From contig BRXU01000006.1 in NCBI GenBank assembly GCA_030267565.1, positions 2,282,001 to 2,346,000 of the forward strand: a stretch of DNA of 64,000 nt. Direction: 5' to 3'. The translations under genes were made by a program, and so were the position numbers. The stretch's first letter is position 1. Each line of letters begins with the position of its first letter. The DNA is from Pleodorina starrii (Eukaryota; Chlorophyta; Chlorophyceae; Chlamydomonadales; Volvocaceae). The notes below the pieces were generated by a model. It saw only the letters and a list, made by a program, of their open reading frames with translations, had not been told where the DNA came from and ran no database searches. Below are positions 13,702 through 57,630 of this stretch, in pieces.

Positions 13702-13733
<32 letters not shown>

Positions 13734-24603: not shown

Positions 24604-24646
<43 letters not shown>

Positions 24647-27600
24647 GGCCGGTGGCGGAGAGCTCCGGGTGGGGGCCGCGTTGGGTCAACGGTCAACGTA
24701 ACGACGGCGACGGCGGCGCTGCTGCTGCTGCTGCGGTGTCGCTGTCCGTGAGCGCATCATGTGGTGACGGCGAGTCCGGACGGTGGTGGCGGCCGGCGGT
24801 ACCCCGTGGCGGCGGCGGCGGCAGCGAATCTGGCGGCGGCAGCTGCTCATCGTCGGCGGAGCGGGAGCGGGAGCGGGAGCCGCAGGCGCTTGCGGCGGCA
24901 CTCGGCGCGTTGTTGTACGGAGGCAAGCGTGACGGCGCCGTCGGGGGAAGCAGCGAGGGCGCCGCCGCCGTCGCCGCCCTGGCGGCCCGCACCACGAGCG
25001 CCGTACGACACGTACGGAGTCCGTGTGTCTTTGGCGGCGGCGGACTCCGCCACCGCGGCAGCAGCGCGACGCCGGCGGCAGCGGTGATGGAGGCACGGCA
25101 GCTGTACGACAGCGGCGGCGGCAGCGGTGGCGAATTCAGCGGCGGCGGCGGCGGCGGCGGCGGCGTCTACGCTAGAGGCGGCCGCCGCTGCGCGGACGAC
25201 CAAGACGATGGCACGTTCTGTGGCGACATTCATATCGACCGGGAAGGGTACGACAACTGCAACGGTAACGGTAACGGTAACGGTAATGGGCAGCACAGCG
25301 ACGCGCCGTTGGGTTTGGTGGAGTTGTACTTGGATCCGGATCGCGATTCGGCTCCGGATCTGGGGCGAAGCTGCCGCCGCGGGGAGGCGGAGCAGCGACA
25401 GCAGCGCGACGGCGCCGGCGGCAACGGCGGCGACGGCGGTGATGGCGGCGACGGTGGCGGCGGTGCGCCTGGGTCCGTCAAAGGCGGGGGTCCTTGCCCT
25501 GGGGGCGGCTCCCCTTGCGGCCCGGGTGAGATGGAGGAGCGGGTGAAGACCGCCGCCGCGGTCAAAGTGAAGCGAGGTGAGTTGTGGCTAGGGTGGGGTC
25601 GGGGTGGCGGGTGAGGGTTCGGGGTCGGGGTGCGCCCGCTCCCCAAAACACACACACACACACCTCCCCCTTTCCTCCCCCTGCGGTCTAACCTTTATTA
25701 TCCCTCTCCCCCTCCCCTCCCCTCCCCTCTCCTCCCCTCCCCTCCCCCCCCCCCGCCGGAGTTCAGCCATGGCCCGCCGCCGCCGCGTCAATGAGCTGTC
25801 GTACCTGGCCCACAGCTCCTTTTGGCTTCTTGGGCCTTATCACTCGCTGAGGATACGGCTGCAGTCGCTGGTGACCAGCAGGGGGTTCGAGGTGGGTGGG
25901 ACCGGGTGACCGTGTGTGTACCGGTATGTGTGCATGTGTGTATGTGTGTGCGTGTTTGCGTGTGTGTACGTGCGCATCTATGCCTGTATCCCTCCCGCCC
26001 CCCCCCCCCACACACACTCCTTATCAGCTTGCCCCTGAGGAATCTACCCCCCCCCGCCCCCCCCCCCCGCCCTTCTCCCTCTTCTCCCCTTCTCCCCCCT
26101 CTTCTCCCCTCCCCCCCCCCAGGGCTGCATGCTGCTCGCCGTGCTGTCCTCCTGTGTGGTCCTGGCTCTCGACCGACCCCGCACCTCCCCCTCCTCCCCC
26201 CTCGCCACCGCACTGCACTGGGCCCAAGTGGGCCTGAATGCGCTGTTTGGGGGGGAGATGCTCATGAAGCTGGTGATCAGGGTGGGTCCAGGGGGGGTTG
26301 GGTCCAGGGGGGGTGGGTCCAGGGGGGGAGGCGGGGAATTGGCGGGGGGAAACTGAGGGAGGTGCTTGGGGGTTTGGGTTTGGGGGGCTTTGGGGGGAGG
26401 GGAGGGGGAGGGAGGGGGCGCAGCCCTCGCCATCCTTTCCCCCCACTCCCTCGCTGCGGTTCCGCCTTTATCGCCACCCCTCCCCCTCCACCCTCCCCCT
26501 CCACCCTCCCCCTCCACCCTCCCCCTCCACCCCCACGCCCCACCCCCCTCCCCGCCCTTCCCCCCGGGTCCGCTCGCTAACGCCGTCTCCTTCTCCGCTG
26601 CGAAATTTTCTTTATACCCCCTCAAACCCCCGTCCAACCCCCCTCCCTCCTCCCCCTCCTCAGGGTTTCCTGCTCCACCCCGGCGCCTACTGCCGCAGTC
26701 CCTGGGACGTCCTGGACGGCCTCGTCCTGGTGGCCTCGCTGCTGCCCCCCACCGCCCCCCCCTCCCACCGGGTAGCCCCCCTGGAGTACCTCCGACTGAT
26801 GAGGTGTCTGAGGCCGCTGCGGGCTGTACGACACATCCCCTGGATGAGGACGGTGGGGGAGACGCTGATTCGGTCGCTGCCGGCGGTGACGCACGTGGTG
26901 GCGTTCGGGGGGTGAGGCGAGGGTTGGAGGGGGGGTTTGAGGGGGTGAGGGGGGTGGGGGGGTGGGGTTGAAGGAGTGGGGTTTTGTGGGGAGGGTTGGA
27001 GGGAGATAGGGGGCCGGAACCACCACCCCGTCCCCACCATCCCATCCCCACCTCCCCCACCTGCCCCATCGCCACCTGCCCCACCCACGTCCTGTCTCGT
27101 CCTTTCTCGTCCAGCTTCCTGTTCGGCGTGTACGGCATCTTGGGCACCCAGCTCTTCAGCGGTCGACTGTCCAGATGCAACCAGGCCCTGATGCCGGACG
27201 GGCAGCCGGTGTACGACAAGTCACAGGTGCGTTGTACGGCAGTACGGCAGTGACTTTCTACCCTGAGGTTGGCGCGTTTTTCTGGACGGCACGGCGCATT
27301 TCCCCCAAAAGGGGGGCCTCCGCCCAGGGTCTCCTCTCCTCTCCTCTGTTGTTCTGGTTTGCTGCCTGTTCAGTCTCGCTGCCGGCTCTCCCCTCGCTCT
27401 CTCTTTCAACCCCCCCCCCAAGCCCTCTCCGACCACCCTCGCTCCCCCCCCCCGCTCGATGTCCCGCAGTGTCCCCCCGGTCCCTTCCAGTGCTCCCCGG
27501 CCGACCTGTGCCCCGACCCCGGCTCCCCCGCCCCCCGAGCCTGGGTCACCCCCTTTCGCAACTTCGACCACCTGGGTCGATCACTGCTCACCCTCTTCAT

Positions 27601-30600
27601 TGTGGCTACATTGGACGGATACATGGACGTGTTGCAGCAGGTGGGGGGGGCCGGGGGGGTGGGGTGGGGGGGTTGTATGTGTATGTGTATGTGTATGTGT
27701 GCGTATATTTGTTTGTGTATGTGTGTATGTGGAGGGGGGTCAGGTGGGATTGCGGGGGGTAAGATCAAAGATACCGCAGCGAAGGGACGGAGACGGCGGG
27801 GGGGAGTGTGTGTGGTGGTGGTGGAGGGGGGTGGGGAATTAGGTGCCGTAATTCCGTCCTATGCTGCATGGGCCCCGTCCCCCTTCTCACCGAGCACGCT
27901 TCTACTTTCTTACCTCCGGCCCCCCCCCCCCACACACACTCCTCTCCCTCGTCCCTCCACCCCTCCGCCTTCCCCTCCTTCCCCTCCCCCCACTCCTTCC
28001 GCAGGTGATCGATGCGGTGGGTCCCGGCCTTCAGCCCCGCCCCAACCACTCCCCCGCCAGCGGCCTCTACGTCAACTCCTTCGTGGTCCTGGGCAGCTTC
28101 TGGATCAATCTGCTGGTGTCGGTGAGGAGGTGGCGGGGAGGGACTGGGGGGGGGGGGAACTGGGGGGGGGGGAAGAGGACTGTTGGGGGGCACTTGCGCG
28201 CGGCGCCCTTGTCCGGGCCTTTCACCTCAACCTCCCCCCCCCCCCCCACGCCTCCACCCCGATCCACACACACACACCGCCCTTCCCGCCCCCCCCTCCC
28301 CCCTCCCGGGTCCCCAGGTGATCATCGACTACTACTCCCGGTTGATGTTGGCCGAGGGGGATCTGTTGGACAGCAAGGAGGCTCGGGAGTGGATGAAGCT
28401 GTTGCAGTTCAGCGCGCGGCCGCAGAGGTGAGGGGGGGCAGATTTGTTCGGGGGCGAGGGCGGGTTGGGGTTTGGGGTTTGGGGGTTGGGGTGGTTTTAG
28501 GGTGTGGGGGTGCGGTTGGGAGCACGCGCCATCCGGCCACCGCCAACCACCCATATCTGGGACCGGGCCGGGTCGGGGTCGGGTTGAGGAAAGACAGCCG
28601 AACCGCAGCGGAGGAATGGATGCTGGTGGTTGGAGTGGGCTGGGTTGGGTGCTTGTTGGGTTGGGTGGTTGCTGTTGTTTCAGCGATTGGGCTTGCAGGG
28701 GTGGCATTGGGGCCCCGGGTGGCCTTGCTTAGGCTTTACCCCCCACCCACCCCCCACCCCCTCTCCTCCCCGACAGGGACTATTGGCGGTCGGTGCCGCT
28801 CCCCTCCCACCGGTTGAGGGCCCGCTGCTACCACCTCGCCTCCTCCCCCTCCTTCGACCGGCTGGTGATGGGGATCATTCTGGCGTATGTGGTGGTCATG
28901 GTGAGGGGGGGGAGAAGGAGGGAGGGGGGGGGGAAGGGTGAAGGGCAGAAATGGGGTGCTTTGCGCGTGGAGGGAGGGAGGGAGGGAGAGTATGAGGGGT
29001 TTTGGGGTCTGGGGAGGGGAACATTGGCGGAGAGTGGTGATCATGGTGAGGGAGGGGGGTTACCGGTATCCACGTATGGGCCCTCCTCTTCTCCCCTCCC
29101 CTGGTCCCCTGCCCTCTCCTCTCACAACCCCCCAACACCCCCCACACTCGTACTCCCCCAACCCAACCCGCACACAAGACCCAACCCGCACACAAGACGC
29201 AACCCGCACACAACATAACGCATCCAATCCAACCCCAGAATCGGCGCGCCTTCTCCCCCCTTTGGCCCCCCTGCCCCTTTCCCTCATCCCCGGCCCCTCC
29301 TGTCTCTCCCCCCCCGGCCCCCCCCCAGTCCCTGCCCCACTACGGCTCCAGTCCCTCTTTCGATGCGGCTCTGACCTACCTCAACGCCGCCTTCACGTTG
29401 CTGTTTGTGGGGGAGGCGGTGGTCAAGGGGGCGGCGATGGGGCCCAGGCGGTACATACAGGCGAGAGAGAGAGAGAGTGGAAGGGAGAGGGTGGGGGGGG
29501 GTGGGGGTGAAGGGTGGGGGGGTGAAGGCTGGGGGAATGAAGCGTGGGAGGAAGTGAAAGGGGGGTTTTGAAGGATGTGTGTGTGTGTGTGAAAAGGGTG
29601 GGGGTTAGCTACTACGGAAGCAGTGAGGCCGAGCGCGGAGCGGTGACCAGACCCCGGGCCGCTTCCTACCCTTCCCTCCCCCTCCCCTCCCCCCCTCCCC
29701 TTCCCTTCCCTCCCTCCCCCCTCCCCTCCAGGACTCCTGGAACAAGCTGGACTTGTTCATCATTCTGACCTCACTTCCCGACCTGTTGTCTCTGGTGGTG
29801 CCGCTGGGGGCGGGAACCACCACCGGGGGGGTGGTGATGAGTGTGTTCAGAATCATGAGGGTCGGTGAGCAGGGGGGGGCGGGGCGGGGAGGTGGGGGAG
29901 CGGGGGGCGGGGGGCTTGGCTGTCTGGACTGTGTGACTGTCGTACTCTTAACTCCCCTGTCGTACTCTCCTATCGTACTCTTATAGTTTCCGCACTCCCT
30001 CCCTTGCACCCACCTTCTCCCTTCCCCCCTCCCTTCCCCCCTCCCACCCCCCTCCCACCCCCCCCCCCCGGGCCCCCAATCCAGGCCGCATGTTCAAGCT
30101 CATCCGCAGTGCTCGCGGGCTGCGCACTCTGTCCAATACCCTCATCTCCTCCTCCCCCGCCATATTGAAGGTTGGCTCGCTGCTGTTCCTGCTCTGCTTC
30201 ATATATGCCGTACTGGGAATGAACCTGTACGGAGGGTACGGCAGTCCCTTTGATGGGGGTGGCGGCGACGGGCCCGGGGCCGCGTCCTTCAATGATGTGG
30301 GCTCCTCTCTCCTAACACTGTTCCAGGTGGGGTGGGGGTGGGGGTGGGGGGTGGGTGGGTGGGGTGGGGGTGGGGGTGGGGGTGGGGGTGGGGGTGGGGG
30401 TGGGGGTGGGGGTGGGGGTGGGGGTGGGGGTGGGGGTGGGGGTGGGGGTGGGGGTGGGGGTGGGGGTGGGGGTGGGGGTGGGGGGTGGGGGTGGGGGTGG
30501 GGGTGGGGGTGGGGGTGGGGGTGGGGGTGGGGGTGGGGGTGGGGGTGGGGGTGGGGGTGGGGGTGGGGGTGGGGGTGGGGGTGGGGGTGGGGGTGGGGGT

Positions 30601-42223: not shown

Positions 42224-44886
42224 GGCACGTGTGGAGGCGGTGGCCGCGGACCCAGCGGGGCGGCGGCAGGGGAGGGGCGGGTCTCTTTTCAAGCGGGCGC
42301 ATCGGGCAGTGGCCGCGCTGCGGCCTATCGCATCAATAAAGGCGTTCGTTGTCGGCTGGTTGTTCCTTTCGTTCGGCCTTGTTCGGCCAGGCCAGCAGCG
42401 GTCTTGAGCTTTGGGATGTGAAGGGATACGTGGAGGGCTGTCTCCGGGAGTATCTCGGGATGCCCCCGCGGGCGGGTTGCTGCTGCAAAAGCCCGCTTGG
42501 TGTGACGGGCCAGCCCCCTACCCCCCTCCCCCTCTCCGCTGCGGTATCTTCTCTTTACCCTCCCTCTCCCCCGCGCAACGGCGCTGCGGTGCTGCTGGTG
42601 TTGCAGCCGTGTGGTGGTGGCTCTATCTCCTGGTGGGCTGAGGGCCAGCCGGGCGAAGGGAAGCGGCGGGTGCAGGCTTTTACAACCACAACCTACTGCT
42701 TCTACATCAGCAACACTCCACTTGACACCCAGTAGTTAGTTCAAATCGATCCCATTCTCATGAAGGCCGGCAACCTTAAAATGTCCTCAAGCGGGGTGTC
42801 CTGCCCCCCGGATGGAGAGGGGTGGCAGGACGACACCCGACATCCGCCGGCGCACCTCCTGGCCCCCGGAGGGCCGTCGCTCAGCACCGGACCGCGGCGC
42901 GGCCTTGCGAACCAACAGCCCGACGGACCGGACCGGACTGGACCGGACTGTCAGACGGGTGGGTGGGTGCCGAGGTCACTGTGCGGGGTGCTCGTCGGCG
43001 AGGGTTCGCCGGCCTGGGGGTGTACGGTATTGGGGCGTACCGTGCCGTGTCGTACCGTACCGTATGTCGGGGGGAGGAGGGGGAGCCGGGCGGCAGGTTG
43101 GCAGTTAGGGATGAAGGCCCATCAGCACTCATGGGCAGATGGAGCGGGAAATGCAGATGGGGGGCTGGAAGGGGTTGCAAGGCAGTGGTGTGTGTGAGGG
43201 TGCTGTGTGGATGGACTTGGTGGCTTTGGTGCTTCGTCGTTGCGGTCGTGTCGGTGCGGTTGTGGCGTTGGTTCAGACGGGGCGGACGACAGGCGAAGTG
43301 CGAAGTGCGAAGGGCGGATGGCGCAGCAGGTGGCACTGGAAGCCGGGGGGCGCGGGGGCACAACAGGCGTTTGTAGGGTCCCAGCACGGCACGCTTGCGC
43401 TGTTGTGCAGCGCCAGGAGCATGTGCGCTGCCGGGTGCGATGTGTCCGCAGGCTCACCTTCTGAGCTGTGGGCCTGACACAGCGCGTCAGGCGCTGGTAT
43501 CTCGCCGGCTGCGGCTAGCTAGCTGCCGCAGCCGCCCTTGGGTTAAGATGGTCGGCTGGGCGGGTGGCCAGCTGGTGCAGGGCGCGGCGTGTAGGCGCAG
43601 GCGTACTGGAAGGCCGGCTCGCGCGACTTTGGCCGCCCGGCGCATTGGCGAAAGACATTCATGACACCTCGTGCAGCAGCCTGCGTCGCGAAGGGAAATT
43701 TGGGTCGGGTTGGGAGATGAAAGTTAGGGGTTGGGGGTAAGCTCCGCTGCTCTTGTTGTATGAATGCCAGGTCGGCTGCGCCGCTATTGGCACGGAATTG
43801 CACTGCACGATGCGGAGTCTGGAGAACGCCGCGACGTTGCCTCAACCCTTTCCACTCGGAACGTCATTTGCTGGGCATGTGTGACCGCCACACGCCTTAC
43901 GTCCACGAGGTTGATGATAAGTCACAGCACCATTGCGTTTGTGCCTCAGATGCCAATGCTGAGGCAGTCTACCGTGGCCAAAGAAGTGCTCCTGTCAAGG
44001 GCGCCTCTTGTTGTAAGCTAAGTGAAGCTTTGCTTAAGCTTATTAAGACTTATACACTGTGTCAAAATACTTGTAATGGAGAGCACCGCGGTCCTTTTAT
44101 AGTTACGTTCTGGGCGTCTACCTATCTATCCCGTCCGTCATCCTTTGGTTGTGCGTTTCCCAAAGCTAGTCAATTTCCAGAAATTCCCGGAATTTACATA
44201 TGCCTCGTGTAACGGGCAGGATGCCAATCGTCCTACTCCCAGGCCGGGACGCTGGCAGGACTGGACACAACGTCAGCTTTTACACGTAGTCAATTGTACA
44301 AGCTTACGTAACATTAATTGGTAAGAAAGAGGATGGAAATTGTACTTGTCGCTGCTAAGACGGGACCGGCTATCCTTCGGTGACAGCCCGTGTTTGACCA
44401 AGCTTGCCGTGAGACTCCTCCCCTTGCATGGATGCCTTGACATTAGACACTATCGCACGCCTATATTTTTGGCACCCCGCAGCGCTCAATGTCATGCACT
44501 GTCCATGCCGGAGGCCGGAGGCGGGAGCTGCTCGACAAGTCGTACACCGTTTCGTTGTGACAGGTAGGTCCGGATGTGCTCCTTCAGCTGATGAACTTTT
44601 ACTTGCACGAAAAAGATCGCAACAGTTGACGAAGGAGCACGGTCACTGCACTGAAGTGCGATCCACAGTCTGTACCACCCGTCTACAGCCCGCCATTTTA
44701 CGTTGCTGCCATTTTACCCTGATTCACACCCTTGATAGTTGTACTTGTGATGATTCTGCTAGGCCTGCAACATCCGGGCCATGAAGAGTGATCTTTGACG
44801 AAAGCGAAGATGTGGTCGTCGGTCACACCAGCTTCGGAGGAATGTCCTATTGGAAAAATGAGACAACAGGAGCTGCTGCGCTTACG
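42224..44886. other. Intergenic region, no supported gene
   Basis: A family 1 copy lies at 42525-42560. GTACCGTACCGT-type repeats occur near 43030-43070, and TGTAA motifs at about 44070 and 44208. Composition shifts to markedly lower GC from about 43850 to 45000. Open frames exist (for example 43760-44212 on the plus strand), but none shows a recognisable domain or a consistent exon chain. Confidence 0.4.
42525..42560 (+). repeat. Dispersed repeat family 1, copy g
   Basis: It reads CCTCTCCGCTGCGGTATCTT then CTCTTTACCC, in intergenic sequence downstream of the acidic-protein gene. Confidence 0.6.
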
Positions 44887-44974
44887 ATGATGAGGATTAT
44901 CTGCAGACCTAAGCGTCAAAACGGCTGGCCTCCACTGCTGTGGTTTTCCATCGTCGCCGTGACTCTCCTCACAG
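44887..44974 (+). other. Proposed signal-peptide exon of the giant surface protein
   Basis: The two adjacent ATGs begin MMRIICRPKRQNGWPPLLWF, followed by SIVAVTLLT: a basic n-region and a hydrophobic core. The single leftover base joins the next exon to read TGGHGAPLL, giving a plausible cleavage context. The large exon itself has no in-frame Met with a leader: its first candidate start is a non-ATG codon, and its frame is blocked by a stop at 45408. Confidence 0.45.
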
Positions 44975-47900
44975 GTCGGCGCCTGCTGAAAATTTCGAAC
45001 ATGTGAACGCACCTACACATCGTGAGGCATGTGATTGCGCAGTATGACTGGGTGGGCTTCACAGGAACAAGTGCGCCGGCAACGGTTGATTTCATGGCGA
45101 GCGGGTTCCAATGACGCCGAAGGGGGCGCCTGGGAGTACCGGGAAGCATGTTTCCAAAAGCATCTCACCGAAACGTCGGCGGGGGCTCCCAGCGCCGACC
45201 CATGTTCCTGACCCATGGGGCTTCAAGTCTTCAAGGCGTACGGATTTGGGTTGACCTGGGGTCCGACCGCCGTGCAATAAACTGGACGTCTCTGAATAAC
45301 TGACACTTCGCGCGTGCGCTTTTTTCCGTAGAGCCCCCGTAGAGTCGCCGAGGAGCCCCCGGGGACCTCCATGGCAACCCAGCCGCAGCTAGCGGCCTCT
45401 CTTTTCGTAGATTTACCGAACTGGCAAGCCGCCTCCTTTCCGTGCGTACAGCAACCTCCCCTCCCTCCTGTTCCCTCCTGTCTCCCCCCCTTGTCGCCTC
45501 CTGTTCCCCGCCCTCCTCGGCGCAGGCGGTCACGGGGCCCCGCTCCTCCAAGGGCGTCGCGACTCGCTCACAGCCGACACCGGCACCGGCGCCGGCGGCG
45601 CCCATCAAGACAGCGGCCGGCTGGGCACTGCCGCGCAAGCGACGATACCACAGCGCCACCACCTCCAGCGGCAGGCCAGCACCAGCGGCAGCAGCGCCAG
45701 CAGCGGCGGCAATGAAAGTAACGACATCGGTGGCGGTGACGGACGCTCCGCCTCCCTGGAGGACCGCAGTGAGACGGCGTCTCCAGGGAGGGCGTTGAAC
45801 CGCAGTCCGCCTTCGGATGGCGAGGTGGTCAGCGAGGTGGTTAGAGAGGTGGTAAGCCGGCGGAGCCTGCTGCAGGCCAGCGGCGGCGGCGACGAGCCGC
45901 CGGTGATGCCGCCCTACCCGCCCAGCTTTCCGTACTTCCCCGGGGTGGATTCGGTCCCGCCGGATGCGTATCCCCCAGAAGCAATACCACCCGACGCTCC
46001 GAACCCGCCGCCGCGGAGGCCGGTCGCCAAGAAGTCTCCGCCACCCCCACCCCGGCCGAGCCCGCGCCCGTCCCCCCAATCCCCGCCCCCACCACGTCCG
46101 CCGGGACCGCCGCCGCCACCGGTTGCGGCATCTCGGCCGCCTCCCTCACCACCGCCTCCGTCGCCACCGCCTCCGTCGCCGCCACCTCCGTCACCGCCAC
46201 CGCCATCGCCGCCGCCGCCATCGCCGCCACCGCCATCGCCGCCGCCTCCGTCCCCGCCACCGCCATTTCCGGCGCCGATTTCGCCGCCGCCGCCGTCGCC
46301 AGATCTTCCGTCGCCCCAGCCGCCGGCCAGGCCCTCGCCAGTGCCGCCGCCGCGGGGACCACATCCTGCCCCAGCAGCCCCGCCCGCCGCAACCCCGTCG
46401 CGGCCGCCGTCACCACAGCCGCCGAGCCCACCGTCCACGCCGTCACCATCGCCCCCGCTGCCGCCGTCGCCGTCACCTCCCCTGCCAGCACCGCCGCCAC
46501 CGCCGCCTTCAACCCCGCCCGCAGCCCCATTACCTTCGCCCCCACCGCCCAGGCCGCCGCCGCTACCTAGGCCGCCGTCGCCTGTCCCTGGTTCCCCGCC
46601 GATCGCGCCGTCTCCGCCGTCGCCAGCACCGCCGGCAGCCCGGCCACCGTCGCCGCCACCGTCGCCGCCGCCATCCGTGCCGCCACGGTCAGCGCCGCCA
46701 GTGAGCCCTCCGCTGCGTCCATCATTGCCGCCGCGGTCGCCGCCGTCGCCGCCGCGCTCGCCGCGGTCGCCGCCGTCGCCGCCGCGGTCGCCGCTGTCGC
46801 CGCCGCGGTCGCCGCGGTCGCCGTCGCCGCCGCGGTCGCCCCGGTCGCCGCCGTCGCCGCCGCGGTCGCCGTCGCCACCGCCGCCGTCGCCGCTGCCAAC
46901 GCCTCCATCGTTGCCGCCGGATGCGTCGCCAGTCCTGCCCGATTCCTCGCCGCCGCCATCGCAGCTAGCGGCCCCGCCGGAGACCGTTGACGCTCCACCG
47001 GCGGCCGCCGCAGAACCCCCCTTCGCACCCAACGAACCCAACAGACCCGGCTCAGCTAATGAGCCCGTCACCTTCACATGGCCCCCGGGGCAGCCACCGC
47101 CGCCTCCCCTGCCTGAGCCGCCGGCCCCACCGGATTCCCTGTCGCCGCCGCCGCCACCACCGCCACCACCACCGCCGCCCTTTGGAGTCATTGACGCTCC
47201 ACCGGCCGCCGCGGATCCCCCCTTCGCACCCAACGAACCCAACAGGCCCGGCTCAGCTAATGAGCCCGTCACCTTCACATGGCCCCCTTGGGAGCCGCTG
47301 CGGGGCCCATCCGCGCTGCCGCCGCCGCCCCAGTATGCCGCCCAGCCATCGCAACCAGATCCGCCGTCGCCGGCGCCGCCGGGGCAGCCCAGCGCGCGGC
47401 CTCCGCGCCCAGCTACGCCTGACCCGCCATCGCCGCCGTCGCCATCGCCGCCATCACCTCCCCCGCCGCTGCCATCGCCATCGCCGCCGTCACCTCCCCC
47501 GCCGCTGCCGCCGCCGCCGCCGTCACCTACCCCGCCGCCGCCACCGTCACCTTCCCCGCCGCTGCCATCGCCATCGCCGCCGTCACCTACCCCGCCGCTG
47601 CCGCCGCCGTCACCTACCCCGCCGCCGCCACCGTCACCTTCCCCGCCGCTGCCATGGCCATCGCCGCCGTCACCTACCCCGCCGCTGCCGCCGCCGTCAC
47701 CTACCCCGCCGCCGCCGCCGTCACCTTCCCCGCCGCTGCCGCCGCCGCTGCCGTCACCTCCCCTGCCGCCGCCGCCGCCGTCACCTTCCCCGCCGCCGCC
47801 GCCGCCGTCCTCGCCGCTGCCGCCGGCACCGCCGGCACCTCCCCCACCGCTGCCACCGGCACCATCGTCGCCGCTGCCGCCGCCGCCGCCGGCACCTTCC

Positions 47901-50900
47901 CCCCCGCTGCCGCCGCCTAAACCCGCGGCACCTAGCCCGCACCCAGCGACGCCCCCTCCTCTGTCGCCCGTAGCGGCCCTGGCAGTACCGCCTCCACCCC
48001 CACCGCTGCGACAATCATTGGTCCGTCCCTCGCCACCGTCCCCGCTGCCGCCTCACCCGCCGCCGCCACCCCTGGCTCCGCCACCGTCCCCACCGTTGCC
48101 GAGCCCACCGTCGCTGCCGCCGCCGCCGTTAGTGTCCGCCCTAGTCGTATCGCCGCCACCAAGGCCTCCACCACCCAAACGTAGGCCCCCGCCACCACCA
48201 GCGCCGCCGCCTTCACGTCCGCCGCCTCCGCCACCGCCACCACCGCCGCCGCCGTTGCAAGATGCCGCGCCACCGGGCTTCCCCGGCTTCGGAGACCCAT
48301 CGCCGCCGCCCCTACCAAACGATCCACCGCCGCCACCTCCACCGCCGCCGCCTCCGGGCCCACCGCTACCTCCTCCGCCATCACCACCTGACCAGCCGTC
48401 GCCGCCACCGCCACCACCGCCGCCGCCGTCTGAACAGCCGCCGCCGCCGCCACCGCCTGAACTGCCACCGCCACCGCCGCCACCACCGCCTGACCAGCCG
48501 TCGGCCCCTCCCGACGCCGCCCCACCAGAGGAGTTGCCACCGCCACCACCGCCTGACCAGCCGTCGGCCCCTCCCGACGCCGCCCCACCAGAGGAGTTGC
48601 CACCGCCACCACCGCCTGACCAGCCGTCGGCCCCTCCCGACGCCGCCCCACCAGAGGAGTTGCCACCGCCACCACCGCCTGACCAGCCGTCGGCCCCTCC
48701 CGACGCCGCCCCACCAGAGGAGTTGCCACCTGAACAGCCACCGCCTGACCAGCCGCTTCCACCGCCACCACCGCCGCCGCCGCCTGAACAGCCGCCGCAT
48801 CCGCCACCACCGCCTGAACTGCCACCGCCACCGCCGCCACCACCGCCTGACCAGCCGTCGACCCCTCCCGACGCCTCCCTCCCAAAGGATCTGCCACCGC
48901 CCTCCGCTCCAAGCTCGACGCCGCCGCTCATCCCCAGCGTCGCGGGTACGCTCGCTCCCCCGCCGCCAGCCTCCCGCCCCGCACTGCCCCCAGTCCCGCC
49001 TTCCCCGTCCGCTCGCTCCTCCGCAGGCTCGCCGCCGCCGCCGCCGCCGTACCTGCTTCCGCTGCCGCCGCCAGCCCAGCACCAGCAGCTCCTCGTCTTC
49101 AACGCGCCGCTTCCGCTGCAGCTGCCGCCCGCCGCCGCCGCCACCGCCGCCGACCCGTTCGCGCGGCTGGTCTCGCTGCGGCTGTCCGAGCCGTCGGTGC
49201 CGTCGGGCACGTTCCTGTGTTCCTACACCGCCGCCGCGCTGCCGGCCGCCGGCCTGGCCTACCTTCACCTGTCCAGCAGCCCTCCCGTCGGCTCGCTGTG
49301 GACTTCGCTGCCGCCCGAATACTCCGCCGCCATGGCGCCGCTGTCCACCATGCCCGGCACCTACTATCTGCTCCTCAGCGACGGCCTGCGGGGGCTGGTG
49401 CAGCAGCACTGCCGGCCCACCGCAGACGTGCGCGCGCGTCTGGCGGCGGCGGCGGGCGCCGCCGCCGCCGCCGCGGCGGCGGCGGGCGCCGCCGCCGCCG
49501 CCGCGGCGGCGGCGGCGGAGCCGCCGGCGGCGACGGTGGAGCTGGAGGGAGGAACGTTTGCGTCGCAGTACGTGGCGGACCTGGCGACGTCGTGGGGCGC
49601 GATGGTGTACTGCCATGTCGTACACGGTGGCGCGCTGGCGGACGAGTTGTGAGTTGCGCGCCCAGGAGGGGAAGGGGGGGGAGCGGGCGGGGGAGATGGC
49701 GGGGGTCCAGGGGACCCTGGGCGGGAGCCGTGGCCCGGTAGCCGGCTGCCGGACGTGCGTTCCTGATGGGGCGAGAGAGGGGGCGGGAGGGAGGGGGATC
49801 GCAGCACCCGCAGCACCCGCAGCATACGCACCCCGCCGCACCGCAGCTCAACGCAACTCAGCTCAACGCAACTCACGCAACCGCACCGACACCGCCACGC
49901 AGGGCGGTCCAGGCGCTGATGCTGCCCAACAACACCATCGCGCCCGTGCTCTCCAACACCACCTTCTTCGGTCCGCCGGAGCCGCAGGTGGGTCCCCCCA
50001 GCCGCCACCTGCTGCTTGAGAGCTTACCTCGCTGTTCTTCCGCAGACGAGACGGCCTTCTTCTGTTACTTTGCCGTTCACGGGCTCCGGCCTATACATGG
50101 ATAACCCCCACGGCCATCGTGGGCCCGGATGTATGTCGTCCGCGGAGGCCGGCCGCGCCTCGACCGCCGCCTCCCCCCTCGTCGCTCGCCCCGCAGGCGC
50201 TGTTGCAGTCGCTGAACCACGAGGACGTCTTCTTCTGGCCGCAAACCATCAGCCCCGCCTGCTGCAACGACACCGCCCCCGACGCCCTCGACGCCGCCGA
50301 TAACGCCCCCGATAACGCCCCCGGCTTCAGCTCCGCCTCCGGCTCAGGCGGCGGCGTGAGCTGCCCCGTGCTGCGCACCGTGTCGCCGGTCCTCTTTGCC
50401 GACACGTCCACCCCCGGCGCCGTGCCGCTGTACAGCCCCTGCACCACCACCTGGTCCCTGCGCCGCAACTTCGCCTGCCGAGTGCCCCTGGCGGTGGCGG
50501 CCGTGCCAGCGGCGGCCGCCGCCGCTGGCGGCGGCGGCGCCGACGGCGACTACGTCGTCAGCGACGTCGATCCTCGTCTGGAACTGCTGCTCTTCCCGGC
50601 GGCGGTTCCCTTTTGGAGCGCGGCGCAGCGCTGCGACCTGCAGGGCGGCCGGCTGCTGTCGCTGCCCGGTGACGCGGGGCGGTGGAGCGCCGAGGCGGCG
50701 GCGGCGTGGCCGCGCGGCACGCCGGGGGAGGTGTGGGCGCTGGACGGCGGCGTCAACTGCAGTCTGGCGGCGCTGGCGCTGGGAGGCGCCGGCGGGGCGC
50801 TGAGCGGCGCGGGCACGGCGAACTGCGATGAGTCGCGGCCGTTTGTGTGCGTGCGAGGTGAGGCTGGGGCTGGGGGGAGGTGGGGTGGGGAGGGAGGGAG

Positions 50901-53900
50901 GGAGCTGCGGGCCGCTGGGCAGCGCGGGTCCCTGTCCGGGTCCCAGTCCATGTTCCTGCCCGCCCCTAACTGAAGTACTGAAGCGCAACGAGCTGAGCTG
51001 GCGTGAGCCGCTGCGCCCACCCACTCACCCACCGCTCCGCCGTCTCCTCTCCTCTCCGGCATCCCCCGCCGCCGCCGCGTGCAGATGTGCTTCCGCCGCC
51101 ACCGCCACCTCCACCGTCGCGCCCAGCGCCCAGCATGCCCTCTGCGCCGCCGCCCCTTCACCCAGGGGCGTCCGCCAGCCCGGCACCGCAGCAGTGGTGG
51201 CCCCCTAGCTACCCCCTGCAGCCCATGTCGCAGGGAGCACCGCCGCCGGAAGCACCGCCGCCGCCTGAGTTGCCGGCGCTGCCGCCGCAGCAGCAGCCTG
51301 GCAGCGCGCCATTACCGCCGCCACCGTCGCCGGGGGTGTTGCCGCCGCCGTCGCCGCAGCCTGATAGGGCACTGCTACCGCCGCCGTCGCCGCCAGCGGC
51401 TTTGCCGCCGCCGCCAGCGCCGATATCGGTTTTGCCGCCCCCGCCGCCAGCGGTTTTGCCGCCGCCGCCGTCGCCACGGCCAGCGGTATCGTCGCAGCCA
51501 CCGTCGCCACCGCCAGTAGCGTTGCCGCCGCCGCCGTCGCCGCCGCCAGCGGCGTTGCCGCCGCCGTCGCCGCCAGCGGTGTTGCCGCCGCCGCCGTCGC
51601 CGCCGCCAGCGGTGTTGCCGCCGCCGCCGTCGCCGCCGCCAGCGTTGTTGCCGCCGCCGTCGCCGCCAGCGGTGTTGGCGCCGCCGTCGCCGCCAGCGGT
51701 GATGCCGCCGCCGCCGTCGCAGCCTGGCAGGGCGCCGCCGCAGCCACAACCTGACAGCCCGGGGGCGGATCCGCAGGTGGGGACGAGGTGAAGCGGAAGC
51801 AGAGTGGAAGGGAGGGGATAGGACGACAGGGAGGGAAGGGAAGGGAAGGGAAGGGAAGGGAAGGGAAGGGAAGGGAAGGGAAGGGAAGGGAAGGGAAGGG
51901 AAGGGAAGGGAGGGGCCAAAGTGACATTTGAGTTCCCTACGGCGGCGAAAGGCACGGGGGCCTGATGGACCGGCGCTGCACACACACACACACACACGCA
52001 CACACACACACACCACCCCGCCCCACCTCGCCCCACCCCGCGGTTTTCTCTCTTTCTCTCTCTCTCTCTCCCTCCACAGGTGGCGGCGCTGCAGCGCATC
52101 GCTGCGGCCTTCAGCACCGGCCGCGGCTCCCGTTGTGACTTGTCCCCCTGGACCGCCTCCGCCTCCGTCGGCGCCGGCGTCCTCGGCTCCCTCCCCAACC
52201 CTTGCGACTGGGCGCCGCGTGTCGACTGCGACGACGGCTCCCACGTCAGCTTCCTCAACCTGACGGCCTGCTGGGGCCCCGGCAACGGCACCGCCGTGGG
52301 CGGCATGCCCTTCCCCGTCGACGACCTCCTGCGCCTCCCCGCCCTCACCCAGCTGCTGCTCGCCGACACAGGCGTCGCCGGCTCGCCGCCGCCGGCGCTG
52401 TCGGCGCTGACGCGCCTGCAGACGCTGGACCTCAGCTACGACCGCGCCGCGGTCGCGGCGGCGGCCCGCGGCCGCGCCGCCGCCGGCGGCCTGGCTGGGC
52501 CGCTGCCGGCGGCCTGGTCGGGCCTGACGGCGCTGACGGCGCTGGACCTCAGCGGCGCGGCACTGACGGGCCCGCTGCCGCCGCAGTTCGCCGCGCTGGA
52601 GCGCCTGGCGGCGCTGGACCTGTCCGCGGCGACGGCGAACGCGACGGGCGCGCCGCTGCCGGCGCGCAGCGGCGGCAGCGGCGGCGGGCTGGGCGGCGGC
52701 CTGCCGGCCGCCTGGTCGGCCCTCTCCGCCCTGACGCGCCTTTCCGTGTCGGGACACAACCTGACGGGGCCGCTGCCTGCGGCCTGGAGCAGCCTGCGGC
52801 TCATGGCGGAGCTGGACCTGTCCCGCAACGCCCTGACGGGCCCCCTGCCGGCGGCCTGGGCCCCAAGCCTGGCCGCGTTGACCTCCCTGGACGCCGCCGG
52901 CAACCCCGGCCTGGCGGGCCCGCTGCCCGCCACCTGGTCGGCGCTGACGGCGCTGCAGCGACTGGGCCTGTCGGGAGCCGCCCTCAACGGCACACTGCCC
53001 GCGTCCTGGTCTGCTCTCAGCCGCCTGACACACCTGGCGCTGGATGCGGAGTACGACAGCGGCGGCGGCGGCGACGCTAGCGGCGGCGGCGGCGCGCTTT
53101 CGGGGCCGCTGCCGGCGGAGTGGGCTGGCCTGACGGCGCTGCGGCACCTGGGCCTGTCCGGCCAGACGGGCCTGTCCGGCAGCCTGCCGCCGGCCTGGTC
53201 GGCGCTGACGGGCCTGTCGTACCTGAACGCCCGCGGCGCGGCGCTGAGCGGCACGCTGCCGGCGCAGTACAGCGCCCTGACCGGCCTCGTGACGCTGGAC
53301 CTGACGGCGCCGGAGGCGCCGTACGACAGCGGCGGCGGCTTCACGGGCGGCCTGCCGCCGGCCTGGTCTGCGCTGGGCTCCCTGACGGCGCTGTCCGTGT
53401 CAGGTCACTTGAACCTGTCCGGCGGCCTGCCCGTCAGCTGGGGCGCTGGCCTTCGGTCGTTGGCGGCGCTCGGCCTGGCGGGGTGTGGGCTGACGGGGCC
53501 GCTGCCGCCGGCCTGGTCGGGCCTGTCGGCGCTGACGCTTCTGGACGTGTCGGACAACCAGCTGCGGGGGACGCTGCCGCCGGCCTGGTCGGGCCTGGCG
53601 GCGCTGGCGGTGCTCAGGGCGTCGGGCAATGCGGCGTTGGGGGGGCAGCTGCCGGCCACCTATAGCGCGCTGGTGGGGCTACGGGAGCTGGATGTGCGAG
53701 GCTGCAACCTGACGGGTGAGGCGGCGGAAAGGGGAGGGGAAAGGGGAAAGGGGAGGGGCGTACGGGCATGGGGTAAAAAGGAGATACCGCAGCGGAGACG
53801 GAGACGGAGCGTTAGCGAACGGACCCGGAACCCAGCAATACTGGGGGCGTGAGGTGAAGGGCTGGGTGGGGTGAGTGAGTAAAAGTAGGAGCCGCAACGA

Positions 53901-56900
53901 GCCAGAGCGAACGAGCGCGGAAGCAGAAGTGCGCCCTGGGGCACTGCGGGGGGAAGGGGAGGGGAGGATTGTGCCGCCGGTCCTTGCGTCCGCCCTCTCA
54001 CCACCGCCCTCTCGCCACCGCCCTCCCGCCAACCCAACACCTCACCGGCGGCTTTCCATGATTCCGCGTGTCGTGCAGGTGGCCTGCCGCTGCCGTACAG
54101 CCGCCTGACGTCACTGTCGGCTCTCCGCCTGAGCGGCAACGCGCTCAACGGCTCCCTGCCGGCGGCCTACTCGGCGCTGGGCGGGCTGAGGGCGGTGGAG
54201 CTTGCGGCCAACCGACTGACGCAGCGGCTGCCGACCGAGTGGTCGGAGCTGCGGGAGCTGCAGGTAGGGAGGGGGGAAGGAGGGTGGGAGGAGGGTTAAT
54301 GAGTGAATTTGCAGGAATGAAACAAGAAGCCCTGGTCGGGGGGTGGGAAAGGAGGGAGGGGTGGGGTGGTTGGGTTGGGGGGAGGGCGGTATGGGTTGGG
54401 CACTTGGGCTCCAGTCCTCCAGACCCTCTTGGAACGGTAGGGGGGGGTAGGTCGGTTCTTTTGGGGGTTTCCTCTCCGCTCCTTCATTGCCCGCCCTGCA
54501 CCCTCTCTCCCCTCCCCGCCTCCTCTTCCTCCCCCTCCTCCTCCTCGCCAGGTGCTCAACGTGTCCCGCAACGCCCTCACCATCAACCTGACCGCCGCAT
54601 CGGTCTGGGCCACCACCCTCACCCGCCTGCGCTCCCTGGACCTATCCCACAACTCCCTCACCGGCGGCCTGCCGCCCGAATGGAGCGCCCTCACAACCCT
54701 GGCATCCCTGGACCTATCCCGCGGCGGCGGCGGCGGCGGCGGCAGCCTGGCGGGCTCCCTGCCCGCCGCCTGGTCGTCCCTCCGCGCCCTCACCTCTCTG
54801 GCGATGCCGGGTCACGCGCTGGACCAGGGCCTGCCGGACTCCTGGTCGGCCCTGACCTCCCTGGAGCGACTCGACCTGGCGTCCAACTCGTTGGAGGGCA
54901 CGCTGCCGCCGTCGTACTCGGCGCTGGCGGCGCTGTCGTACCTGGACCTGTCGGACAACCAGCTGGTCGGCGGCGTCCCCGCAGGCTGGCTGCGCGGCGG
55001 CGGCGGCGGCGGCGGCATGGCGGCTCTGCAGGAGCTGACACTGGCGGCGAACCAGCTGACGGGCGGCCTGCCGGACGTCTTGGGAGGGGATGGTGTCGTA
55101 CTGCCCGCCGGCGCCGCCGCCGCTGCCGCGGCGGCGGCGGCGCCGTTGCGCGTGCTCAACATGTCGAGGAACCTGCGGCTGGGCCCGGCGGAGCTGCCGG
55201 CCGCCGTGCAGCCGTACATGTCGTACCTGGTGACGCTGGACCTGGCGGGGTGCAGCCTGACGGGCGGCCTGCCCCCCTCCTGGAGCCAGCTGTCGGCGCT
55301 GACGGCGCTGTACCTGGGGGACAATGCGCTGACGGGGCCGCTGCCGCCGCAGTGGGCTGCGCTGGGGGGAGCAGGCGGTGGGGGTGGGGATGGAAGTGGA
55401 AGTGGAGGTAGGCGCCGGGTGGCGGAGCAGCAGCCGGCGGCGGCGGTGGCGGCGGCGGCGGAGGTGGCGGCCGACGCCGTCGCCGCCACTACGCGGCTTC
55501 AGGAGGCCGCCGTGCTGCTGCCGCCGTCGGAGACGCTGGCGGAGGCGGTGCTGCCGACGGCGGTGCCGGCGGCCAAGGCGGCGGCGGCGACGGCGGCGGC
55601 GGCGGCTCCGTCGGGCCCCGGCCTGGCGGTGCTTCAGTTGCAGTACAACCAGCTGACGGGGTCGCTGCCTTCCGCCTGGTCAGCGCTGGGCTCGCTGCGG
55701 CAACTGCTGCTGACGGGCAACCGGCTGCAGGGGCCCATCCCGGCGTCCTGGGCCGTCGGCATGACGGGCCTGACCAGCCTGGACGTCTCCCTCAACACGC
55801 CCCTCCCTGGCGTCTGCGGCGCAAACCCCGGCGGCGTGCTGTGGCCCAAGAACCAGACGGGTGCCCCCCTGGAGTTGCCCGCCTGCGGCCCGGCACCGCC
55901 GCCGCCGACGCCGCCGAAGCAGCCGCTACGGCCGTCGGTCCTGCAGCCGCCGCCGCGGCCGCCGCCGCCGCCGCAGCAGCAGCGGGAGCCGCGGGAGCCC
56001 ATGGCGCCGCGCGACCCGCCGGCGCCGCCGCCGCCGTCGCCGCCGCGCCCTCCAGCGCCGCCGCGGCCACGGCCGCCGACGCCGACGCCGCCGACGCCGC
56101 CGGCGCCGGCGCCGCCGCAGGCCGTCGGCATCTTCCCCGCGCAGCCGACGCAGGGAGTGGGATCGCCGCCGGCCGCCGCCGAGCTCAATGGGGAGAGGGC
56201 AGGTGGGTGTGGGGGTGGGGGTGGGTGTGTGTGTGGGGGGGGTTAAGGGTTTAAGGAAAAGCAGTCCGGACACCGCAGGCCAGCGGTCGGTTCTTACCCT
56301 CCTTCCCTGACTGCCTCCTTGTCTCCGTCCCTCCACTCCTGGTGTCTCGTTTGACCAATATGGTTTTAGGGTTTTAGGGTTTTCTTTGGACATACACTGT
56401 GCCTGTCTGTCTGTCTGTCTGTCTGTAAGCTCAATAGCTTGTCAACTGGCGCCCCTTGGACTGTCGTACCGTACTCCACACCTCCCTCCCTCCATCCCCT
56501 CCACCCTCTTTTCCCCCACACTCGCTCACCCGCGCCCCCCCCCGTCTCCGCTGCGGTATCTTCTTTTTTACCCCCCCCCCCCCTCCCTTCCGCTTCCGCC
56601 AGTGGGTGGCACCACAGGCGACTCGAGCCGCAGCAGCAGCTTCCGACCCTGGTGGATCGGCGTCATCGTGGCGAGCATCGTGGGAGCGCTACTGCTGCTG
56701 CTCGTCATCGTTGCCGTACTGCGGCGGCGCCGCCAGCGGGGCCGAGACTACATATACGGCCAAGGCCCCGGCGGGGAGCGGAGCGCCCGATCCGCCGCCG
56801 CGGCGGCTGGCGGGCCGTCGGCGGCTTCCTTCCGCGCCAGGCAGGTGCCGTCGGGAGGACAGCCGCCGGCAGAGGCCGCGGCGGCGGGCGGGATGGGCCG

Positions 56901-57630
56901 CATCTCGCCGGGCGGAGCGCAGTGGCTGCCGCTGCCGCCGGCGGTGGGGGCGGAGGCGGCGGCGGCGGCGCTGGCGGCGGCGCCGCCGGGCCTGGACCGA
57001 CCGTCCCTGTATGCGCAGTACCACAACCCGGTGTTTGGGGGCAATGATCAGGGCGGCGGCGGCGGGGTGGCCAACTGGCAAGACGTCATGAGCGCGTTTT
57101 ATCTGGTGGAGCAAGAGGGCTACGATTCGCCGGCGCCCACGCCGCCGCCGCCGCCACCACCGCCGCCGCCGCAGCAGCCGGTGCCGTCGTCGCCGCTGCC
57201 GGCGCTCCCGACGGATGCGTCGCCGCAGCGGTCGGCCTCGCTGCTGCGGTCGCCGAGCCCCATGTCGACGCCGCCGCCCGTGCTGGCGGCGCCGCGGTCG
57301 CCGCCGCCGCTGCCGGCGGCGGCGGCAGCGGCGAGGCCGCGAAGTATGACGGCTCGTACGGCGACCGCCGCCTCGACGTCTGCCTCCACGAGGCCGCCGG
57401 TCAGTCGGACGCAATCCGTCCCGGCGGCTCCATTGGTCCAGGGGGGCCAGGCGGTCCAGGGGGGCCAGGCGGTCCAGGGGGGCCAGGCGGTGGAACTGTG
57501 GATCAACGACCCGGCGGCGGCGGCGGCGGGGGCCGCGTCCGGCAGCGGGCCGGCGGGCGGCAACAACGTGAGAGTGGAGATCGTGGCCCCCGGCGGCGCG
57601 CCTGGGGGGGAGCAGGCGACTGGCCGGTAG
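44887..57630 (+). CDS. Giant rod / C-type-lectin-like / LRR single-pass membrane protein
   Basis: A predicted cell-surface protein of about 3,382 aa. Nine exons agree in phase: 44887-44974, 45526-49648, 49903-49987, 50197-50857, 51085-51776, 52080-53715, 54079-54263, 54552-56202, 56603-57630. Order: signal peptide (PPLLWFSIVAVTLL), acidic/Ser-rich lead, a giant [10 protein letters not shown] rod, an Ala-rich region, a C-type-lectin-like domain, a second rod, a plant-type LRR cap and about 25 LRRs, a Pro stalk, one TM helix, [13 protein letters not shown] stop-transfer, and a Pro/Ala/Ser-rich tail. There is no kinase. SPPPP motifs are typical of hydroxyproline-rich wall and matrix proteins of volvocine algae. 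LRR with a single TM and no kinase resembles plant receptor-like proteins. Linking matrix to cytoplasm is inference. Exon 1 is the weakest call: the donor ACAG/GTCGGC is atypical and the exon lies 551 bases upstream. Confidence 0.78.
45895..49080 (+). other. First proline-rich rod (about 1,060 residues)
   Basis: Uninterrupted Pro/Ser/Ala-rich sequence contains [17 protein letters not shown] and DQPSAPPDAAPPEE motifs. The early segment is dominated by SPPPP, and the middle holds two copies of a FAPNEPNRPGSANEPVTFTW unit (around 47029-47090 and 47222-47285). Such stretches form extended polyproline-II rods after hydroxylation and glycosylation in algal matrix proteins; modification here is inferred. 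Confidence 0.75.
48489..48740. repeat. 63-bp coding tandem repeat, 4 copies
   Basis: The copies are nearly identical at the DNA level (starts at about 48491, 48554, 48617 and 48680) and encode PDQPSAPPDAAPPEELPPPPP. They lie within the first proline rod. Sequence identity including silent positions indicates recent expansion. Confidence 0.85.
50030..50112 (+). repeat. Dispersed repeat family 2, copy c (intronic)
   Basis: It reads CGCTGTTCTTCCGCAGACGA, GTTACTTTGCCGTTCACG, GGCTCCGGCCTATACATGG and ATAACCCCCA, inside the intron 49988-50196 of the giant surface-protein gene, in the same orientation as the gene. Confidence 0.7.
50540..50857 (+). other. C-type-lectin-like domain
   Basis: The exon's C-terminal half has four Cys in the order expected of a C-type-lectin fold: FWSAAQRCDLQGGRLLSLPG, EVWALDGGVNCSLAAL, GTANCDESRPFVCVR. 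The opening W/A/C/GG pattern and the closing C...FVC are the recognisable parts. The central WIGL region and the Ca2+-binding EPN/QPD and WND motifs are not obvious, so sugar binding is not assured. Short and Ala/Gly-diluted relative to animal domains. Confidence 0.6.
51085..51776 (+). other. Second proline-rich rod exon
   Basis: About 230 residues of PPPPSPP and PPAVLPPPPS repeats, bounded by introns of phase 1 and phase 0. It connects the lectin-like domain to the LRR domain. The AVLPPPPSPP unit repeats with little silent divergence. Confidence 0.75.
51834..51911. repeat. (GGGAA)n microsatellite, about 15 copies
   Basis: A perfect pentanucleotide run in the intron 51777-52079 of the giant surface-protein gene, followed by a (CA)n-like run at about 51980-52015 and a CT-rich tract before the acceptor. 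Confidence 0.9.
52080..55860 (+). other. Leucine-rich repeat ectodomain with plant-type N-cap
   Basis: It starts with an LRRNT-like cap: VAALQRIAAAFSTG, then NPCDWAPRVDCDDGSHVSFL with paired Cys. About 25 repeats follow with the motif LPPAWSxLxxLxxLxLSxNxLxG, as in LPAAWSSLRLMAELDLSRNA. It spans three exons (52080-53715, 54079-54263, 54552-56202), with Gly/Ala insertions at about 54724-54760 and 55375-55610. It closes with LDVSLNTPLPGVCG and a Cys pair. Confidence 0.82.
53771..53845 (-). repeat. Dispersed repeat family 1, copy h (intronic)
   Basis: The plus strand reads GGGTAAAAAGGAGATACCGC, AGCGGAGACGGAGACGGAGC, GTTAGCGAACGGACCCGGAA and CCCAGCAATACTGGG. It is a full-length reverse copy in the intron 53716-54078, almost identical to the channel-gene copy at 16623. 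Confidence 0.8.
56542..56574 (+). repeat. Dispersed repeat family 1, copy i (intronic)
   Basis: It reads CCCGTCTCCGCTGCGGTATC then TTCTTTTTTACCCC, 28 bases before the acceptor of the transmembrane exon. The same intron (56203-56602) carries two TTTTAGGG units near 56365. Confidence 0.75.
56650..57630 (+). other. Transmembrane helix and cytoplasmic tail
   Basis: The helix WWIGVIVASIVGALLLLLVI then VAVL (56650-56721) is followed by [13 protein letters not shown]. The tail of about 300 residues has NPVFGGNDQ, WQDVMSAFYLVEQEGYDSP, Pro and Ser/Arg-rich stretches and three copies of VQGGQA (57436-57492), ending EQATGR. Two Tyr-containing motifs (DYIYG, YAQYHNPVF) could serve trafficking or signalling; that is speculative. 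Confidence 0.75.

What the first reader, a model, noticed from the sequence alone, without database searches (positions are those of the whole stretch)
44887..57630. Unusual domain chain: proline rods, lectin-like domain, about 25 plant-type LRRs and one TM helix
Nine phase-consistent exons give one protein of about 3,380 residues. It combines extensin-like rods (a matrix or wall feature of volvocine algae), a C-type-lectin-like fold and a plant receptor-like-protein ectodomain, with no kinase. I know of LRR receptor-like proteins in land plants and of lectin and Pro-rich proteins in algae, but not of this combination. It could be a matrix-to-cytoplasm anchor or sensor (inference).
Basis: partly seen in the sequence, partly recalled or inferred. 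Interest (0 to 1): 0.86.

Follow-up and report, generated by a model that had tools for sequence, protein, structure and literature searches.

The report
Algal LRR–proline-rod membrane surface protein
A volvocine green alga appears to encode one giant surface protein in which long proline-rich rods, a small lectin-like domain and a large leucine-rich-repeat domain are anchored in the membrane by one helix, probably to link or sense the matrix; each part has known relatives, and the unusual thing is that they sit in one chain.

Summary
The gene model holds: nine GT-AG exons, 3,382 residues, no internal stop; GC3 is 0.87-0.96 in exons 3, 4 and 6-9. Proline rods, LRRs and one transmembrane helix are clear. 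Intron 5 is the weak point for 'one gene': nothing found argues for a split, but no transcript was available. Two corrections. (1) The lectin domain is a compact, divergent C-type-lectin-like domain (CTLD). Pfam misses it and its structure model is uninformative, but it scores 14-15 bits with an algal CTLD profile. No shuffle reaches that, and it tops 1,875 tiles of the window. The alignment lacks the long loop, where sugar normally binds (recalled). (2) The LRRs are not the land-plant subtype: 21 of 27 anchors are LPxxW, as in chlorophytes and kinetoplastids (W-majority in 12 of 15 and 10 of 10 labelled hits; land plants 0 of 21). Proteins with LRR, proline rods and a membrane anchor are known elsewhere (P0018; C. 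reinhardtii, legend). Best reading: a membrane-anchored HRGP-LRR matrix tether or sensor, a new variant of a known algal kind. Function is inferred only.

The parts
44887..44974 (+). exon 1: start codon and signal-peptide-like segment (MMRIICRPKRQNGWPPLLWFSIVAVTLLTG)
   Evidence: donor GTCGGC is unlike the GTGAGT-like others, so this is the least certain exon
45526..49648 (+). exon 2: 130-residue Ser/Gly-rich N-terminal stretch with RRSLLQ, long proline rod 1, start of an unassigned region
   Evidence: only stop-free frame of three (8, 29, 0 stops)
45915..49088 (+). proline rod 1, residues 160-1217 (55% Pro, 24 SP3+ and 28 SP2 motifs), about 330 nm if a polyproline-II helix
49089..50520 (+). 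unassigned region (residues 1218-1540; introns 2-3 included in the span), includes poly-Ala
   Evidence: no Pfam match over cut-off; CTLD1 candidate 1366-1532 not supported (57 and 203 of 1000 shuffles reach it)
49903..49987 (+). exon 3
   Evidence: GC3 0.96
50197..50857 (+). exon 4
   Evidence: GC3 0.91
50521..50857 (+). compact C-type-lectin-like domain (residues 1541-1652), long-loop region missing
   Evidence: against:
51085..51776 (+). exon 5: proline rod 2 (residues 1653-1880, 50% Pro)
   Evidence: 2, 5, 0 stops
52080..53715 (+). exon 6: Cys-containing LRR N-cap (Cys 1902, 1925, 1933, 1947) and first LPxxW LRRs
   Evidence: (LRR_8 8.7e-23)
54079..54263 (+). exon 7: LRRs, in register with exon 6
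54552..56202 (+). exon 8: remaining LRRs with a low-complexity insert of about 84 residues, C-terminal Cys pair, proline linker (rod 3)
   Evidence: (LRR_8 2.3e-29)
55887..56202 (+). proline linker, rod 3 (residues 2936-3010 are 55% Pro), and start of the juxtamembrane segment
56603..57630 (+). exon 9: juxtamembrane segment, transmembrane helix, cytoplasmic tail, stop
56662..56718 (+). single transmembrane helix (residues 3061-3079)
   Evidence: KD 3.26, next best window in the chain 1.68
56731..57630 (+). cytoplasmic tail of 299 residues, Ala/Pro/Gly-rich
   Evidence: nothing over cut-off in exon 9 (weak TM_ErbB1, E 0.023, on the helix)

Best explanation
One gene of a volvocine green alga encodes a single-pass membrane protein of the HRGP class. 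The secreted N-terminal part is a rod that would be hydroxylated and glycosylated into a stiff polyproline-II stalk of up to about 330 nm, then a compact C-type-lectin-like domain, a second rod of about 70 nm, a large LPxxW-type LRR solenoid near the membrane, one helix and a 299-residue tail. Most likely it ties the plasma membrane to the extracellular matrix: the rods lodge in the HRGP network, the LRR binds a partner (protein ligand or co-receptor) near the membrane, and the tail reports or anchors inside. Shown: reading frames, domain order, rods, LRRs, membrane helix. Inferred: that all exons are one transcript, glycosylation, tethering, sensing and signalling.
For: Gene model without stops, GT-AG throughout, GC3 periodicity. 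LRR register continues across introns 6 and 7. Split at intron 5 disfavoured: that 303-base intron has one ATG, opening a 57-codon frame whose first 25 residues are not hydrophobic; the first Met of the exon-6 ORF (codon 114) lies after the N-cap cysteines; no TGTAA (volvocine poly-A signal, recalled) lies between 44208 and 56424. Same kind elsewhere: P0018 (LRR, SPPP rods, TM, tail), P0014 of Tetradesmus (LRR, TM, Pro-containing tail, no kinase in its Pfam list). Polyproline-II helices spanning hundreds of nm on a membrane-anchored CTL protein are shown for MST3 (PMC11015965, passages). LRX proteins are thought to anchor by the extensin part and bind by the LRR (PMC4477543, abstract).
Against: No transcript, and no protein with the full order found: none of 2,647 scored candidates, none of 7,991; both are limited by protein length and need shared exact words, so distant relatives are not excluded. 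No partner, ligand or localisation is known. No TGTAA follows the stop codon for 3.6 kb, while one lies in intron 8, so the 3' end may differ. LRR paralogue loci in the genome do not help: Pro-rich frames near them are background.
Confidence: 0.5

Rival explanations
1. Two genes: an upstream secreted rod-lectin HRGP (exons 1-5, ending in the read-through stop just after exon 5) and a downstream LRR-TM receptor-like protein (exons 6-9) with an undetected first exon.
For: Exon 5 read through meets a stop at the fifth codon; the LRR N-cap at the start of exon 6 is where a stand-alone LRR protein would begin; chlorophyte LRR-TM proteins without rods of this length exist (P0014, P0016).
Against: Intron 5 is 303 bases with one ATG and no clear signal peptide (a mild AVFSLSLSLS stretch lies 26 residues in); no TGTAA from 44208 to 56424; phases agree at all eight junctions, worth only about 1 in 3 each.
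Confidence: 0.2
2. A purely structural extracellular-matrix protein: LRR and rods are assembly modules, and the helix only serves delivery or is removed; no sensing.
For: HRGP with lectin-like domains is reported in the algal zygote wall (reference title, mention and title). A TGTAA and a stop after 14 codons in intron 8 would allow a soluble form without helix.
Against: Strong TM helix followed by RRRRQRGR and a 299-residue tail in exon 9 with GC3 0.87, more tail than a mere anchor needs (inference).
Confidence: 0.2
3. An immune-type pattern receptor (like LRR-RLP or SRCR/CTL receptors) that recognises microbes.
For: C. reinhardtii has more than 30 genes with SRCR and/or CTL domains, with suggested immune or chemoreceptive roles (PMC8226300, passage).
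Against: Land-plant LRR-RLP features tested are not met; only five places with LRR similarity were found outside this gene (a lower bound), unlike an expanded immune family.
Confidence: 0.1

Closest known systems
MST3, mastigoneme axial protein of Chlamydomonas (PMC11015965; 9b4h_X)
   Same: Giant, polyproline-II rod, C-type lectin domains, membrane anchored
   Different: MST3 ends in a PKD2-like domain; here one helix, LRRs, one compact CTLD. This genome has a separate MST3-like gene at C1:6089656: two of its CTLDs are 54% and 56% identical to MST3 domains 2 and 3
C. reinhardtii proteins with partial PKD2-like domains (Figure S7 legend of PMC11015965)
   Same: Poly(proline) regions in six of seven; LRR, SRCR and SEA are among the ectodomain types named
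   Different: PKD2-like multi-pass membrane part; I saw the legend only, not which domain sits in which protein
P0018, unnamed environmental sequence of 940 aa
   Same: LPxxW LRRs, SPPP rods, one TM helix at 785, tail
   Different: LRRs come first, rods after; no rod of 1,000 residues; CTLD not looked for
Leishmania PSA (PMC2584048) and GP46-like proteins
   Same: 24-25-residue G(T/S)LPxxW repeats (passages); here G at -2 in 25 of 27, W in 21 of 27
   Different: T/S after G in only 8 of 27; PSA is secreted or GPI/TM-anchored with a Thr/Ser-rich stalk, not proline rods
Land-plant leucine-rich-repeat extensins (LRX)
   Same: LRR plus SP3-5 extensin part, wall anchoring
   Different: Order reversed, TM helix present, LRR subtype differs; no LRX found in the four algae examined, V. 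carteri and C. reinhardtii among them (PMC4769139, passage)
Polycystin-1
   Same: LRRs and a C-type lectin domain in one membrane ectodomain (PMC7728438, passages)
   Different: 11 TM helices (PMC9672506, abstract in listing), PKD and REJ domains, no proline rods (recalled)

Membership tests
Land-plant LRR receptor-like protein (LRR-RLP) | LRRs of the land-plant GxIPxxL type (type recalled) | tested here: not met
   21 of 27 anchors are W, 1 of 27 begins with I; 0 of 21 labelled land-plant hits are W-majority
Land-plant LRR receptor-like protein (LRR-RLP) | Island domain with Yx8KG or Kx5Y before the last four LRRs (common, not universal: over 75%) | tested here: not met
   Motifs absent; a low-complexity insert of about 84 residues does lie before the last LRRs, with 2 anchors after it
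Land-plant LRR receptor-like protein (LRR-RLP) | GxxxG in the TM helix, acidic outer juxtamembrane (in most) | tested here: not met
   No GxxxG (GVIVA, ASIVG, SIVGA only); LNGERAVGGTTGDSSRSSSFRPWW has 2 acidic and 3 basic residues
Land-plant LRR receptor-like protein (LRR-RLP) | Single TM helix and no kinase | tested here: met
C-type-lectin-like domain (CTLD) | Pfam Lectin_C match | tested here: not met
   PF00059 not reported at E<=10; own-genome PF00059 search found 4 other places, not this one (8 candidates scored)
C-type-lectin-like domain (CTLD) | Ordered Cys / WIGL-like / Cx7C signature and profile similarity | tested here: met
   1 of 667 window ORFs, 30 of 20,000 shuffles (pattern written with this sequence in view); 14 bits, 0 of 1000 shuffles; best of 1,875 tiles, 8 of 8 segment limits. 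Against: with 1218-1654 as one piece the signal is lost (15 and 850 of 1000)
C-type-lectin-like domain (CTLD) | Long loop with calcium/sugar-binding motifs | tested here: not met
   Alignment jumps from profile position 33 to 95 over 27 residues; motif positions recalled
C-type-lectin-like domain (CTLD) | CTLD fold | tested here: inconclusive
   Single-sequence AlphaFold2, pLDDT 40
Leucine-rich repeat extensin (LRX) | N-terminal LRR followed by C-terminal extensin domain | tested here: not met
   Main rods precede the LRR; a TM helix follows
HRGP / chimeric extensin | Repeated Ser-Pro3-5 modules | tested here: met
   24 SP3+ motifs in rod 1, 4 in rod 2
HRGP / chimeric extensin | Hydroxyproline and O-glycans | not testable with these tools
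   needs protein
PSA/GP46-type LRR | 24-25-residue repeat with G, P, W at fixed places | tested here: met
   G 25/27, W 21/27, 18 of 26 spacings 24-25; subtype of repeat only, not family membership
MST3 / polycystin-like | PKD2-like channel domain | tested here: not met
   One TM helix, no channel family in exon 9

The most novel reading that the evidence does not exclude
A kinase-free wall/matrix tension sensor evolved in volvocine algae by joining an LPxxW LRR-TM receptor to a rod-CTLD-rod stalk of several hundred nm: a single-helix counterpart of what MST3-PKD2 may do on cilia and LRX plus FERONIA do in land plants, with a soluble form made by ending in intron 8.
Probability: 0.2. Interest if true: 0.68.

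Novelty: new variant of a known kind. Interest (0 to 1): 0.45.

Why it matters
How volvocine cells sense and hold their protein-based matrix is open; PMC6704257 (passages) proposes surface sensors and points to SRCR proteins with lectin and Hyp-rich parts. This gene gives one concrete, testable candidate in an LRR form. It also shows that the LRRs of many chlorophyte surface proteins share the LPxxW repeat with kinetoplastid PSA/GP46-like proteins and not with land-plant receptors, which bears on claims about the origin of plant receptors.

Full report
What is there. The window lies on contig C6 of a 136-Mb, 95-contig genome. The nine exons splice to 3,382 residues with one terminal stop, GT-AG at all eight introns. 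GC3 is 0.87-0.96 in exons 3, 4 and 6-9; exons 1, 2 and 5 have 0.66, 0.73 and 0.79, but exons 2 and 5 are open in only one frame each.

Anatomy. A signal-like start in exon 1 (by eye) is followed by about 130 Ser/Gly-rich residues, rod 1 (160-1217, 55% Pro, 24 SP3+ and 28 SP2 motifs), an unassigned region with poly-Ala (1218-1540), a compact C-type-lectin-like segment (1541-1652), rod 2 (1653-1880), a Cys-containing N-cap and LRR array (1884-2935), a proline linker, one transmembrane helix (3061-3079) and a 299-residue tail. At 0.31 nm per residue (recalled) rods 1 and 2 would be about 330 and 70 nm long as polyproline-II.

LRR. Pfam LRR_8 matches exons 6 and 8 at 8.7e-23 and 2.3e-29. There are 27 anchors, 14 spacings of 24 and 4 of 25; 2,000 shuffles never exceed 4 anchors. 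The exon 6-7 and 7-8 joins keep the repeat register, which supports those introns independently. In the protein search 340 of 7,993 scored candidates passed and 120 were listed, lengths limited to about 300-950. Rank 1 is a trypanosomatid, the first named chlorophyte rank 8, the first named land plant rank 28. W-type repeats form the majority in 44 of 120: 10 of 10 labelled kinetoplastids, 12 of 15 chlorophytes, 0 of 21 land plants. The PSA paper gives G(T/S)LPxxW as that family's signature (PMC2584048, passages). The N-cap aligns with pieces of a Chlamydomonas schloesseri and a Tetrabaena protein at 22-31% identity (five sequences, limits chosen by me).

Lectin-like domain. Against: no Lectin_C match, no PDB sequence match, hhalign over 14 columns, unusable model. 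For: a signature drawn from five CTLDs of this genome, but written with this sequence in view, occurs in 1 of 667 window ORFs and in 30 of 20,000 exon-4 shuffles. A profile from those five plus MST3 and LY75 domains scores 14.3 bits (14.1 with six more sequences), above all of 1000 shuffles. With eight different segment limits, whole exon 4 included (10.6 and 10.7 bits), 0 of 500 shuffles reach the real score. Among 1,875 tiles of 114 residues from all window ORFs the best is this domain (14.8), the best tile elsewhere 5.8 or 7.9. Only when 1218-1654 is scored as one piece is the signal lost (15 and 850 of 1000). The alignment lacks the long loop, so canonical calcium-dependent sugar binding is unlikely (inference).

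One gene or two. Intron 5 is the place to doubt. Its single ATG opens a 57-codon frame that begins with Arg, His, Thr and Pro; a mild AVFSLSLSLS stretch follows. The exon-6 ORF has no Met before codon 114, beyond the N-cap cysteines. No TGTAA occurs between 44208 and 56424. TGTAA does occur in intron 8 at 56424 and next at 61303; a read-through of intron 8 stops after 14 codons. So a soluble form is possible and the 3' end of the long form is not located.

Relatives. In the same genome the LRR exon finds five places outside this gene, on C11, C7, C25 and two on C12. Frames around them show LPxxW motifs, Pro-rich stretches and, at C7, C12 and C25, hydrophobic segments; no CTLD profile match at E<=1 on the strand searched. 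Pro-rich frames are common in this genome, so these loci do not show further rod-LRR fusions. In other organisms P0018 joins LRR, rods, TM and tail, and P0014 joins LRR, TM and tail. In C. reinhardtii, seven proteins with partial PKD2 domains carry poly(Pro) (six of seven) with LRR, SRCR or SEA among the domain types (legend), and SRR16 is a predicted 797-kDa TM protein with 14 CTL domains (PMC3757049, passage). No LRR-RLK was found in five green algal genomes (PMC5296948, passages), yet two Tetraselmis hits carry kinase and LRR Pfam domains (P0025, P0048).

Conclusion. That I know of no paper with this combination rests on search listings (open-access library only), of which I opened passages of twelve papers; the one paper holding all terms (PMC6019070) was not opened.

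Noticed in passing
window 56203-56602 (TGTAA at 56424): Intron 8 holds a TGTAA and an in-frame stop after 14 codons; no TGTAA follows the final stop until 61303. Possible soluble isoform or a misplaced 3' end.
   Followed up: partly
window 11935-28318: Ion_trans pieces at 11935-13284 and 14205-15266 (profile positions 23-115 and 158-238) and one below cut-off at 27254-28318, with a 2,115-residue low-complexity ORF at 19267-25614 between: perhaps a giant cation channel gene.
   Followed up: no
window about 48500-48740: Four near-identical tandem copies reading PPPPPPDQPSAPPDAAPPEEL in rod 1, and a separate duplicated block around FAPNEPNRPGSANEPVTFTWPP: recent rod expansion.
   Followed up: no
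G000 C1:6089656 (L003, L019, L020): MST3-like gene: two CTLDs 54% and 56% identical to MST3 domains 2 and 3, a 2,555-residue ORF next to them.
   Followed up: partly
G000 C17:70000-99999 (L015-L017): Cluster of CTLD-like exons; in one piece (L017/L005) the profile match skips about positions 65-98, so it too seems short of the long loop.
   Followed up: partly
G000 C11:2571550, minus strand (L031): LPxxW LRR paralogue frame running into a long WDGMG/WMG tandem expansion.
   Followed up: no
P0025, P0048 (Tetraselmis): LPxxW LRR proteins with kinase Pfam domains, although LRR-RLKs are reported absent from five green algal genomes.
   Followed up: no
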